From contig NC_017946.1 in the NCBI RefSeq assembly GCF_000263735.1, positions 1,653,348 to 1,717,347 on the forward strand: a stretch of DNA of 64,000 bases. Reading direction: 5' to 3'. Shown here in pieces: positions 36,603-41,416 of this stretch. The position numbers were made by a program, and so were the translations under genes. The stretch's first letter is position 1; each line of letters opens with the position of its first letter. The notes beneath the pieces are model-generated. The model ran no database searches and was not told the origin of the DNA. It was given only the letters and a program-made list of their open reading frames with translations. Origin of the DNA: Pyrococcus sp. ST04. GTDB lineage: Archaea; Methanobacteriota_B; Thermococci; Thermococcales; Thermococcaceae.

Positions 36603-37314
36603 GTTCCAATAAGACTAAAAAAAGAATTGAAAGTTTGGCTGAAACTCTTCTGAGAGAGCCGCTATTTTTGTTCCAATAAGACTAAAAAAAGAATTGAAAG
36701 ATGTAGAACTTAGGGCACCAGCTACAGGGTTTTTTGAAGTAGAGTTCCAATAAGACTAAAAAAGAATTGAAAGTGGCTAAATGGTGGTCCGCTTGTGATG
36801 ATCATTAGTGTTCCAATAAGACTAAAAAAGAATTGAAAGGTATATGGGAGTGTTATTTCTTGCCCACTTTCTATTTGTTCCAATAAGACTAAAAAAGAAT
36901 TGAAAGCCGATGACGCCTGCCTTCTCAGCCTCGTCCTGCTTGAGTTCCAATAAGACTAAAAAAGAATTGAAAGGAACTTTATCTTGTCAATCAGCCAGCC
37001 TATTGCTCCTGTTCCAATAAGACTAAAAAAGAATTGAAAGCTGCATTCAGCGAAGCAATATCTCCTGACTTCCAGTGTTCCAATAAGACTAAAAAAGAAT
37101 TGAAAGGGGACTTTAAGCGGAAGGTTGATCCCAGGCTCTACATGTTCCAATAAGACTAAAAAAAGAATTGAAAGACGGGGGCAATTCTGGTAATAGCAAT
37201 AGTAATATGAGGTCCAATAAGACTAAAAAAGAATTGAAAGCCTTTTCCAATGTGAAGTCTCTTGATGAAGTAGTAAAATCTCTAGTTCTGATAAGACTAA
37301 ACATTGAGAGATAA
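36603..37314 (+). CRISPR. CRISPR array, ten repeats plus one degenerate terminal repeat
   Basis: Repeats of 30 bases begin GTTCCAATAAGACTA and end GAATTGAAAG. They start at 36603, 36670, 36744, 36810, 36877, 36944, 37011, 37077, 37144 and 37211; a degenerate eleventh starts at 37285. Repeats 1, 2 and 9 have one extra A (31 bases), and repeat 10 starts GGTCC. The ten spacers are 36, 43, 36, 37, 37, 37, 36, 37, 36 and 44 bases and are all different. The decay at the right end and the leader at the left agree on polarity. The repeat is the type I remember from P. furiosus. No cas genes are in the window, so processing must depend on genes elsewhere. Confidence 0.97.
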
Positions 37315-37345: not shown

Positions 37346-38629
37346 GTGCTTGTCCATATAGGGATTGATGATACTGACTCACCAAACGGCATGTGCACAA
37401 CTTATCTAGGCGCAGTCCTCTTTAAAGAACTTTCTAGGTTAGGAGACCCTTTAGATCTCCCAAAATTAATTCGTCTTAATCCGAATATTCCTTATAAGAC
37501 GAGAGGAAATGGAGCAGTGGCCTTAACTTTTAACATTGAAGAGGAAGATTTCAAGGAGGTCAAAGAGGTCGTCATTGAGAGGGTTAAGGAATTAGCTGAC
37601 TTCTCCCACGAGAACACAAATCCCGGTATTGCGTTCCTCATTGGAGATGTACCAGAAAAGCTCAGAGAATTTTCCATCAAGGCCTTAAGGGAGCATGTTA
37701 GCATAGAAGAAGCGGAGAGAGTTGCAAAAGATGTGAAGGCTGAGGTTATAAAGTTCAAACTTGGAAGAGGAATAATTGGGGCCCTAGCTGCAATTGGATA
37801 CCCGCTTAGAAAGTTCACCTATGAGTTGCTGGCATATAGAAAGATTGAAAATAGGGAAAAAGAGAGGAAGATCGTGAAGGAAAGTGTGTTTCTAATGGAC
37901 AGCAGGTTCTACCCGTTCACATATGATAATGTAGACAGAGACAAGGGAAGTGTCTTAATAACTCCCCACGGAAAGGATCCCGTTCTCGTTGGGATTAGAG
38001 GGGTTGATAGGGGCAGGGTTCTTCAGGCATTCGAAGAGGTCTTAATTGAGGAAGATGTTGTGATGGTTCAGCTGTACAAGACAAATCAAAGTACTGACGA
38101 TCATCTTGTCCCAAAGAAGATTAAGGACGTTAAGCTGTACGATAGTGTTATCATAAGGGGAAAGGTGTCAAGCCCCTACTGGGAGAGGGGAAGGCACGTT
38201 TTCTTTGAGGTTGAGGATGAAACGGGGAAAATAAGGGTTGCCGCCTTTGAACCTACAAAGAAGTTCAGAAAATACGTAAGAATGCTAATCCCAGGAGATG
38301 AGGTCATCATAGCAGGGGGAGTGAAGGAGCATGAGGGAGTTCTAACAGTCAATTTAGAAAAGTTCTATCCAGTAAAGCTTGCCCCCAATATAGAGTATGT
38401 GAAGCCAAGATGTCCTAAATGTGGGGGTACTATGAAGAGCAAAGGTGAGTACCTCAAGTGCAAGAGGTGCGGGTATAAGATGCCAAAGATATTAATGGCC
38501 GTGGAAAGGCCCAGGGGGTTGAAGAGGAAAATATACGAAGTTCCTCCAGACGCGAGAAAGCATCTTTCAAGGCCTCTCGTTCTTCCTGGAGGAGAGGACA
38601 AGCTACTGGAGTTGCTCTGGAGACTCTGA
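37346..38629 (+). CDS. tiaS: tRNA(Ile2) 2-agmatinylcytidine synthetase TiaS
   Basis: Modifies C34 of tRNA-Ile(CAU) with agmatine so that it reads AUA codons, an essential archaeal function. The 427-residue protein begins [20 protein letters not shown] (DDTD catalytic region). It has an OB-fold domain near residues 270-345 ([20 protein letters not shown]) and a zinc ribbon [21 protein letters not shown] near 350. Start is GTG 37346. The last repeat remnant of the CRISPR array ends only about 30 bases upstream, so its promoter must lie in or over the array end. Confidence 0.93.
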
Positions 38630-39052
38630 CCTTCTCTCTGCCTTGGAGGGCGAGGGTTCCAGCGATTTAACCCCTCGCCATTGACGGGGAGGTTTGAGGG
38701 GCTTCATGATTCTCCCATTCAAGTGGCGTTGGCCACAGAGAGGGCAGGTTTGAGAAGCGAAAGCCTCATCCACTAAGACAACTTGAATACCATACTCCTC
38801 AACCACATCAATCAAACGTCTAATAACGTAATTAAACCTCCACACGTGGGAGAGAATGAAGTTTTGTTTCTTACCCTTACCAGAGTTTCTTGCTATGCCC
38901 TTAAGATAGCCGACGAAACTGGCTTTAGCACTTCCACAGTTAACTCACCTTTAGCTCCTAAGAGAAGCAAGGCGTGATGAACTGCGATAATATGCTTCCA
39001 TCACTCCCACGTAATCATTCTTTATCCCCCTCAAACCCTTACTGGCAAAATC
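38603..39052 (-). pseudogene. Decayed IS605-family tnpB
   Basis: Minus-strand pieces of a TnpB-like protein are recognisable: GIARNSGKGKKQNFILSHVW, VIRRLIDVVEEYGIQVVLVDE and the zinc-finger start AFASQTCPLCGQRHLNG. The remaining finger cysteines and the C-terminal catalytic block are missing; the frame continues as an unrelated basic tail into the end of tiaS. Upstream of about 38945 the frame is broken by stops, with another fragment starting MDFASKGLRGIKNDYVG near 39052. The element is therefore inactive. Confidence 0.75.
38649..38679. repeat. Inverted repeat at the end of the decayed tnpB
   Basis: GGCGAGGG (38649-38656) and CCCTCGCC (38672-38679) form a perfect 8-base stem with a 15-base loop, just beyond the tiaS stop. 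It resembles the hairpins at ends of IS605-type elements. Confidence 0.5.
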
Positions 39053-39118: not shown

Positions 39119-39358
39119 TTATTCAAAAGCGCTAATTTTAGCGAGCTTAACTTCTCCAGAACTTTCGACAAAGTTCCAATCGTTTTTGACCCCAAATGCT
39201 CTCACAGCGTTCAGCGTTGCAAGTGTATCGGTGCAGATTAGCGGATTCTCTATTTTTATTTCTCCTTCCGAAAGTAATCCCAAAACATGATACCCTATGG
39301 GTGTAGTTCTTTGAGGAGAAGCTTTAATTTTTTTTCCATCTAAAGTTTTTATCAGCAT
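39119..39358 (-). pseudogene. Fragment resembling the N-terminus of EPSP synthase (AroA)
   Basis: The 79-residue frame contains LLSEGEIKIENPLICTDTLA followed by TLNAVRAFGV. This matches the family pattern in which LAEGxSxIxNPLxSDDTLATLxAxxxLG follows the SKSxxHR motif. The SKS/HR residues themselves are altered (TTPIGYHVLG), and everything after residue 80 of a roughly 400-residue enzyme is absent. It is best read as a truncated, decayed duplicate; the full aro genes are not in this window. Confidence 0.55.
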
Positions 39359-39519: not shown

Positions 39520-40533
39520 TTATCCAACTACAGTCTCCTGCGTTATTATTACTATGCTTTTGGTTGGGTGTATATTTATTCTCGCTAATGTTGTGTTTTT
39601 GATTAAAGTTGATCTTATAATCACTTTTGGTTCACATGTTCCATTTGCTGTAAATGATAAGGAACCTTTTTCATCTTCAAAAACATTTACGTAGTATTCG
39701 CCACTTGTGTAATAACCAAAAGCTCCTAAATAACCCATCCAGTCCTTTGAATAAATTTCTTCACCTTCCGCTTTTTGTGTTAGACAGTAATCGTTTGGAG
39801 GTTCAATGTCCTCATAACCTTCAAACCTTCTCAGAGCTCTCTCAACTTCTTTACCTACAATCAAAATGCCGTATTCACTTTTTATCTCTTCAAAGGTCTC
39901 TTTAATTCTGTTCTTGTATTCGTTCACTTTCTTTCCGTACTCCTCACTATACCCGACCTTTTTAGGAATCCAGATTTCTACGGTGCAGTTTTCTTCAGCC
40001 ATATAGCCCAGTATATACCTTGAATCATCAAGCTTTGTTATCTTTGCACTAACCAATTTGCCAAATGGGTAACTTGGCCATTCCTTAAATACAACACTCA
40101 TCGGAATTATGATATAACTTTTTGGAGGTATACTAAGGTTAAACTTTAGAGTGTCTCCTTCCAGACAGACTATTTCATTACTCCAATTTACTTCAATAAA
40201 CGTTGCATTTGGTGCCATAGAAAATGTCCTCAAAACTATAAAGCTGTTATCAATGAAAAATACTTCGGCATTCCCTTTAATTTCCTTTGGAAGGTTTACG
40301 GAGAGTATCCAGTTAAGTGTTTCATTGTTTTTGTTAAAAACAATGACATTTAACGTGTAGCTTTTTTCATCTACAATCTCCAGAGTTCTAACATCAGGAA
40401 AAGCCAGCGCAGGTCTTAGGTTTTCATAGGGATGTTTGTCCTTGTGGGGTGAAATTATGAACATGAGTGCACTGACTACTAGAAAAATAAAGATAAGAGA
40501 TGCAAAAATCAGTTGCTTCTTTTTAATCTCCAT
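39520..40533 (-). CDS. Membrane-anchored extracellular protein of unknown function
   Basis: The 337 residues start with MEIKKKQLIF and a hydrophobic anchor (about 8-27), followed by an extracytoplasmic domain with many Asn-x-Thr/Ser sites (for example NETLNW, NATFIEV, NKNNE). No enzyme motif is seen. The early part (residues about 40-150) reads like a beta-sandwich. ATG 40533 has GGGGGAG upstream; a longer frame enters the preceding gene. It starts 17 bases after the caspase-like gene, so the two are one operon and may act together outside the cell. Confidence 0.65.
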   Translation of the reverse strand: MEIKKKQLIFASLIFIFLVVSALMFIISPHKDKHPYENLRPALAFPDVRTLEIVDEKSYTLNVIVFNKNNETLNWILSVNLPKEIKGNAEVFFIDNSFIVLRTFSMAPNATFIEVNWSNEIVCLEGDTLKFNLSIPPKSYIIIPMSVVFKEWPSYPFGKLVSAKITKLDDSRYILGYMAEENCTVEIWIPKKVGYSEEYGKKVNEYKNRIKETFEEIKSEYGILIVGKEVERALRRFEGYEDIEPPNDYCLTQKAEGEEIYSKDWMGYLGAFGYYTSGEYYVNVFEDEKGSLSFTANGTCEPKVIIRSTLIKNTTLARINIHPTKSIVIITQETVVG

Positions 40534-40550
40534 AAATCTCCCCCACTTAT

Positions 40551-41315
40551 TTATAACTTCCATGACTTGTTCCCATCAAGACCAAACCTTGGACATCCCC
40601 ACTCCCACCAGTGAGGTTGAATGGCGTCTACAGCTTGCTTAACAGTTTTCCCTCTTGAAAGTTCACTCCAAAATTTTTTACCTTTTGGCTTTATATATTT
40701 TAAAGCAATCAAATCCTTTGTGCCAACATAGGTCACAGAGTAGTGTTTTTTGATCCCATACCTTAATTTATATGAATCACATCCAAGGACAAACACTAAA
40801 GCATCATTCAAATTTGCTCCCATTGCTTTAAAATTACCTGCATATGTGTCAGGCTTCACACCATACACATCATCTAAAATAAGCCCCCAAATTCCTTTTT
40901 TCTTATTCCCTGCAGTGTGACCATAGTAGTAAATAACCCTAATGTTCCTATTTAAACCTTGTTTGAAATAATTGGTACACGCTGAATCGCTACACTTATC
41001 TCTACCTGCGTTCCAAGTAATAACAGAATATCCTTTATTCCCTAATATTCCAGACACATAATTTGTGTGATAATAGTTATAGTCATCATCTGGGACATAG
41101 TGAATAATTGCGTATTTTCCATAGCTCCTTGCTAGAGGTGTGTATCCCTTGGCTGGAATTGGTACTACTGCTTTTTCTCTCTCTTCCATTGCGAATTTGA
41201 GGTCTCTGATTAGTTCTGTTAGGGGTAAAGTCATTTCTTTTGCACTTGCTAAAGCTGGGCTAACCATTAAGCCCAGCATTAACCCTAACAGTACGAGGCT
41301 CAAAAGCCTCTTCAT
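40551..41315 (-). CDS. Secreted caspase-like (clan CD) cysteine peptidase candidate
   Basis: The 254-residue protein has a signal peptide (MKRLLSLVLLGLMLGLMVSP, cleavage near residue 25). It then shows the two-block clan CD signature: hydrophobic residues plus His-containing RVIYYYGHTAG (H133) and hydrophobic residues plus Gly-Cys in ALVFVLGCDS (C179). The His-Cys spacing of 46 residues and the following FWSELSRGKTVKQAVDAI helix match the gingipain/CHAT/caspase layout. Three more cysteines (C108, C113, C241) may form a disulfide or bind metal. No propeptide family is recognised. It is followed by an anchored partner gene. Catalytic activity is inferred. Confidence 0.6.
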   Translation of the reverse strand: MKRLLSLVLLGLMLGLMVSPALASAKEMTLPLTELIRDLKFAMEEREKAVVPIPAKGYTPLARSYGKYAIIHYVPDDDYNYYHTNYVSGILGNKGYSVITWNAGRDKCSDSACTNYFKQGLNRNIRVIYYYGHTAGNKKKGIWGLILDDVYGVKPDTYAGNFKAMGANLNDALVFVLGCDSYKLRYGIKKHYSVTYVGTKDLIALKYIKPKGKKFWSELSRGKTVKQAVDAIQPHWWEWGCPRFGLDGNKSWKL

Positions 41316-41416
41316 AGAACACCCTCAAAATTTATGAACGAAAATTCATATTTGAGTTTTACGCTTTGCTATAGGAAACAAAAACCTTTTTATTGAAGTG
41401 GAACCACTTCAAGCCG

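What the first reader, a model, noticed from the sequence alone, without database searches (positions are those of the whole stretch)
39520..41315. Secreted caspase-like peptidase with a membrane-anchored partner
The 254-residue product has a signal peptide and both clan CD blocks (YYYGHTAG with H133, ALVFVLGCDS with C179), followed by the helix FWSELSRGKTVKQAVDAI that is usual in gingipain/CHAT-like folds. The gene downstream encodes an anchored extracellular domain of unknown fold, 17 bases away. Extracellular caspase-like proteins in a hyperthermophile, beside mobile-element debris and a CRISPR array, could be a toxin, a processing enzyme or a surface-remodelling pair.
Basis: partly seen in the sequence, partly recalled or inferred. 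Interest (0 to 1): 0.8.

Follow-up and report, generated by a model that had tools for sequence, protein, structure and literature searches.

The report
Secreted caspase-like protease with anchored partner
A heat-loving archaeon carries a small two-gene unit that appears to make a secreted protein-cutting enzyme and a membrane-tethered partner; the unit comes and goes between related genomes in a way that suggests a weapon and its antidote, a kind of archaeal system that is barely known.

Summary
Window 40551-41315(-) encodes a 254-aa exported protein; 39520-40533(-) encodes a signal-anchored ectodomain protein 17 bp downstream. Neither matches Pfam, NCBIfam, PHROGs or PDB sequences. Relatives of the first occur in 6 of 94 Thermococcaceae genomes and nowhere else searched; all five complete copies sit beside the partner gene, at four different chromosomal sites. 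His133 and Cys179 are invariant down to about 36% identity. Profile comparison places the protein nearest CHAT peptidases (clan CD), both catalytic residues in register (hhalign score 41.6; best of 200 permutations 21.6), but bacterial CHAT alone is not significant. AlphaFold without an alignment failed (pLDDT 37), so the fold is unproven. New: two intact partner genes survive where the peptidase gene was deleted, while no peptidase is found without a partner; and the window gene's promoter plus signal peptide (to codon 25) is about 88% identical in DNA to that of an unrelated secreted Cys-rich protein in another genus. Best reading: a mobile effector-immunity-like cassette, a secreted protease with a membrane-anchored protector. 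Fold likely, function tentative. The mobile-element debris is real; the CRISPR array is only a neighbour.

The parts
40551..41315 (-). Gene of the secreted caspase/CHAT-like cysteine peptidase candidate, 254 aa
   Evidence: ORF; homologues in five other genomes, four of them complete; invariant dyad
41241..41374 (-). Leader module: about 59 nt upstream plus codons 1-25 (signal peptide), shared in DNA with an unrelated secreted gene in genus g5
   Evidence: 87-90% identity over about 100 nt in G088, G090, G091; alignment ends at codon 25
40917..40919 (-). Codon of His133, candidate catalytic His
   Evidence: Invariant; aligned with the CHAT catalytic His
40779..40781 (-). Codon of Cys179, candidate catalytic Cys, the only Cys shared by all family members
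   Evidence: Invariant; aligned with the CHAT catalytic Cys
39520..40533 (-). Partner gene, 337 aa: N-terminal membrane anchor plus ectodomain with two invariant Cys (250, 300)
   Evidence: ORF; homologues beside the peptidase gene in G010, G015, G021, G023 and alone in G017; alignment
40453..40509 (-). Signal anchor of the partner (residues 9-27)
   Evidence: Hydropathy peak 3.02, no second segment

Best explanation
The two genes form a mobile operon of Thermococcaceae. The first product is exported through Sec, loses its signal peptide and becomes a small single-domain cysteine peptidase with a His133-Cys179 dyad on a caspase/CHAT-type (clan CD) sheet. The second product stays in the membrane with its ectodomain outside and binds the peptidase, keeping the producer's own surface safe. 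The cassette most likely acts in competition between archaea: the released protease damages surface proteins of neighbours that lack the partner, and lineages that lose the protease can keep the partner as protection. Shown: gene pair, export and anchor signals, invariant dyad, presence at several sites, loss pattern, shared leader. Supported by profile comparison: CHAT-like relationship. Inferred: proteolysis, inhibition by the partner, use as a toxin.
For: Pair adjacent in all five complete copies. Dyad invariant in all five. hhalign A1 against CHAT: score 41.6, P 2.3e-5, none of 200 permutations above 21.6; both catalytic residues in register with three CHAT sets. Four different chromosomal sites; ribE and ribBA are adjacent in 23 of 30 genomes viewed and split by the cassette in G015 and G023. 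Two intact partner genes in G017 with the peptidase gene deleted down to its last codons, each left just behind a TATA-like stretch; no peptidase without a partner. The leader, ending at the signal-peptide cleavage site, is shared with an unrelated Cys-rich secreted protein. The rib site in G021 instead holds an exported 483-aa protein with three tandem paralogues, the layout of an effector with an immunity array. Partner diverges faster than peptidase (49% against 70% between G015 and G023).
Against: No activity or binding data. No usable structure model. Bacterial CHAT alone does not score above an unrelated profile (19.6 against 19.7). Orphan partners rest on one genome; three other lone partners (G072, G055, G004) are decaying, as expected if the partner is useless without the peptidase. 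No known target. No match to known immunity proteins.
Confidence: 0.42

Rival explanations
1. Surface-processing pair: the partner is the substrate, anchor or activator of the peptidase (sheddase, maturation or remodelling of an envelope protein), with no role in competition.
For: Tightly linked or overlapping genes; partner anchored at the surface where the peptidase would arrive; decay of lone partners in G072, G055 and G004.
Against: Sparse distribution (6 of 94 genomes) argues against a general envelope function; two intact lone partners with promoters in G017.
Confidence: 0.32
2. Regulated cell death or stress response: a caspase-like executioner of the producing cell.
For: Caspase-like activity has been described in the archaeon Haloferax volcanii (PMC3615174).
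Against: An export signal places it outside the cell; no sensor or regulatory domain; cassette-like distribution.
Confidence: 0.08
3. Not a peptidase: the GH and GCDS motifs are conserved for another reason (another hydrolase, or a binding protein) on a different fold.
For: No family or PDB sequence match; low-confidence models; invariant H83 and D76 allow other arrangements.
Against: Strand-GH and strand-GC motifs at clan CD spacing, invariant; dyad in register with CHAT in three profile comparisons; score far above permutations for archaeal and combined CHAT.
Confidence: 0.18

Closest known systems
CHAT domain peptidases (Pfam PF12770; e.g. the TPR-CHAT protease Csx29, PMC10028731)
   Same: Order and register of the His and Cys motifs; C-terminal motif (f..l..GkT..qA) aligned with the CHAT (fy..l..g.s...A) region
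   Different: Exported single domain without TPR or other domains; below detection by the Pfam model; paired with an anchored ectodomain protein
Gingipains (peptidase family C25)
   Same: Secreted clan CD cysteine peptidases
   Different: No profile similarity beyond permutations; much smaller; C25 members exist separately in other Thermococci
Polymorphic toxin and VARTIG modules of Thermococcales (PMC8416519)
   Same: Exported protein followed by a membrane protein; variable presence; proposed role in conflicts
   Different: No Ig-domain leading protein and no gene arrays in the window; short two-gene cassette at other sites; the paper text does not mention caspases or peptidases
Orphan immunity genes of bacterial toxin systems (e.g. 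PMC12247911, PMC5361080)
   Same: Protector-like gene retained after loss of its toxin gene
   Different: Archaeal; partner is an extracellular membrane-anchored protein; protection not tested
Protease-dependent antagonism in haloarchaea (HlyR4 and HapP, PMC12893001)
   Same: An extracellular protease takes part in archaeal antagonism
   Different: There a serine protease activates a precursor protein; here the candidate is a cysteine peptidase with an anchored partner

Membership tests
Clan CD peptidase | Catalytic His then Cys, each after a hydrophobic strand | tested here: met
   VIYYYGHTA and ALVFVLGCDS, invariant in five members
Clan CD peptidase | Caspase/haemoglobinase sheet | tested here: inconclusive
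   AlphaFold on the single sequence, mean pLDDT 37
Clan CD peptidase | Cysteine peptidase activity | not testable with these tools
   Needs expression and an assay
CHAT peptidase (PF12770) | Match to the Pfam CHAT model above its cut-off | tested here: not met
   No match for any of five members up to E 10
CHAT peptidase (PF12770) | Profile similarity over the catalytic core with the dyad in register | tested here: inconclusive
   Significant with archaeal and combined CHAT, not with bacterial CHAT alone; register correct in all three
Gingipain C25, caspase C14, clostripain C11 | Profile similarity above permutations | tested here: not met
   Scores 19.1, 15.5 and 12.4, within permuted scores
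Toxin-immunity system | Adjacent effector and protector genes, protector never missing when the effector is present | tested here: met
   Five of five complete copies paired; small sample
Toxin-immunity system | Intact orphan protector genes | tested here: met
   Two loci in one genome, G017; others decayed
Toxin-immunity system | Partner neutralises the toxin; toxin harms cells without it | not testable with these tools
   Needs expression and co-culture
VARTIG module | Large Ig-domain protein (arCOG07710) at the 5' end of the locus | tested here: not met
   No large exported ORF upstream of the pair in the window or in L027-L030

The most novel reading that the evidence does not exclude
A new class of archaeal secreted protease weapon with a membrane-tethered extracellular antidote, carried as an exchangeable cassette whose promoter and signal peptide form a constant leader reused in front of unrelated secreted effectors across Thermococcaceae genera.
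Probability: 0.27. Interest if true: 0.8.

Novelty: new variant of a known kind. Interest (0 to 1): 0.58.

Why it matters
Weapons and self-protection in hyperthermophilic archaea are almost unknown. If true, this gives a two-gene system in a group with transformable laboratory species, in which an extracellular caspase-like enzyme, its anchored inhibitor, and the reuse of one leader by different effector genes can each be tested directly.

Tried and rejected
Sequence searches in Pfam, NCBIfam, PADLOC, PHROGs, PDB, viral contigs, genome contigs, plasmids and phages found nothing. Two AlphaFold runs on window proteins alone gave unusable models, so no fold search was run. A first hhalign run was flawed by wrong-strand sequences and was redone. 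A column-mapping script gave a wrong register and was replaced by parsing the alignments. Weak hits (NsnC, Aga2, Pox_A32, Phe_tRNA-synt_N, an immunoglobulin chain; E 0.02-1.5) were treated as noise. A functional link to the CRISPR array was set aside: an unrelated gene lies between, and the relatives' loci were not scanned for arrays. The resemblance of the leader-sharing Cys-rich protein to halocin C8 is from memory; NCBIfam, Pfam and plasmid searches did not confirm it. Likewise, nuclease-toxin families were not found in the 483-aa protein at the G021 rib site.

Full report
What is there. The window lies in a single-contig 1,736,885-bp Thermococcaceae genome. The genes are at the stated coordinates. 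The peptidase candidate has a cleavable-type signal peptide (ALASA), a segment of about 40 residues that varies between relatives, and a conserved core from about residue 66. Its partner has one N-terminal hydrophobic anchor after lysines and no second membrane segment, hence an ectodomain. The gap is 17 bp when the partner starts at the second in-frame ATG; in relatives the genes abut or overlap.

Conservation. Among 94 Thermococcaceae genomes the peptidase occurs in six: G000 (window), G010, G015, G021, G023 and, cut by a contig end, G066. Searching 115 genomes of the phylum with the profile added only a C-terminal remnant in G017. All five complete copies are followed by the partner gene. 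Invariant residues include D76, H83, Y129-A135 (YYYGHTA), F175-S181 (FVLGCDS), G198, G222-T224 and A228. Cys179 is the only Cys shared by all. The partner keeps two invariant Cys (250, 300), compatible with a disulfide. The partner diverges faster: between G015 and G023 it is 49% identical, the peptidase 70%.

Fold. No library recognises the family. I built profiles from clan CD families found in Thermococci and compared them with alignment A1 by hhalign. CHAT: score 41.6, probability 76%, 169 columns; 200 column permutations reach at most 21.6 and the reversed profile 15.1. C25, C14 and C11 stay within their permutations. Ten CHAT domains from bacterial plasmids score 19.6, just above their permutations (maximum 19.1) but level with an unrelated ribBA profile (19.7); all CHAT domains together give 31.9 against a permutation maximum of 18.0. 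In all three CHAT alignments H133 falls on the catalytic His and C179 on the catalytic Cys. I read this as a probable but unproven distant CHAT relationship. AlphaFold on the single sequence failed.

Mobility and loss. In the window the pair sits between a TiaS-like and a TrkH-like gene (names from reading the sequence), in G010 at another place, in G015 and G023 between ribE and ribBA, and in G021 and G066 beside TldD-like genes. The ribE|ribBA junction is closed in 23 of 30 genomes viewed. G017 carries an intact partner at both the rib and the Tld site with the peptidase deleted: at the rib site only GACTGGAGGTTGTGA (DWRL-stop) remains, at the other about 27 residues, each just behind a TATA-like stretch. 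G072 holds a frameshifted partner, G055 and G004 fragments. Partner genes group by site (79% between G021 and G017 at the Tld site), which suggests that both cassettes are old and that the peptidase was lost twice. No peptidase without a partner was seen, but the sample is small.

Leader. A DNA search with the 5' region of the window gene found 87-90% identity over about 100 nt in G088, G090 and G091, in front of an unrelated 274-aa secreted protein. The similarity runs from about -59 to codon 25 and stops at the expected signal-peptide cleavage site. The 274-aa protein has a C-terminal domain with eight Cys and is followed by genes for a small membrane protein and a lipoprotein-like protein. 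It reminds me of halocin C8 precursors; this was not confirmed. One leader before two different exported proteins suggests swapping of effectors behind a constant export module.

Neighbouring evidence. In G021 the ribE|ribBA junction holds instead an exported 483-aa protein followed by three tandem paralogues of 209-232 aa. This is the layout of an effector with an immunity array; no family model supports it.

Comparison with the known. Toxin-like variable modules (VARTIG) are described in Thermococcales (PMC8416519) but are led by large Ig-domain proteins and do not contain this pair as far as the text shows. Orphan immunity genes are well known in bacteria. Protease-dependent antagonism has been reported in haloarchaea with a serine protease (PMC12893001). 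I found no description of the present family.

Conclusion. A secreted clan CD-like peptidase with an anchored partner, carried as a cassette, is well supported as anatomy. The effector-immunity function is the best single reading at about 0.4, with a surface-processing pair as the main rival.

Noticed in passing
L034 933-1757(-), L035 7177-8001(+), L036 2002-2826(-): 274-aa secreted protein with a Cys-rich C-terminal domain in three genomes of another genus, using the same promoter and signal-peptide DNA as the window gene; resembles halocin C8 precursors from memory only.
   Followed up: partly
L158 2399-6205(+): At the ribE|ribBA junction of G021, an exported 483-aa protein followed by three tandem paralogues (224, 232 and 209 aa): looks like another effector with an immunity array; the junction may be an insertion hotspot.
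   Followed up: partly
window 38603-38845 and 39119-39358 (-): Fragments of a TnpB-type protein and of EPSP synthase next to the pair: remains of mobile or lost genes.
   Followed up: partly
window 36603-37240: CRISPR array with CRISPR-DR6 repeats.
   Followed up: no
L080-L088: Several Thermococcaceae carry a nearly identical C14-type caspase domain (FSGHG and DSCYSGG blocks), a separate family from the window protein.
   Followed up: no
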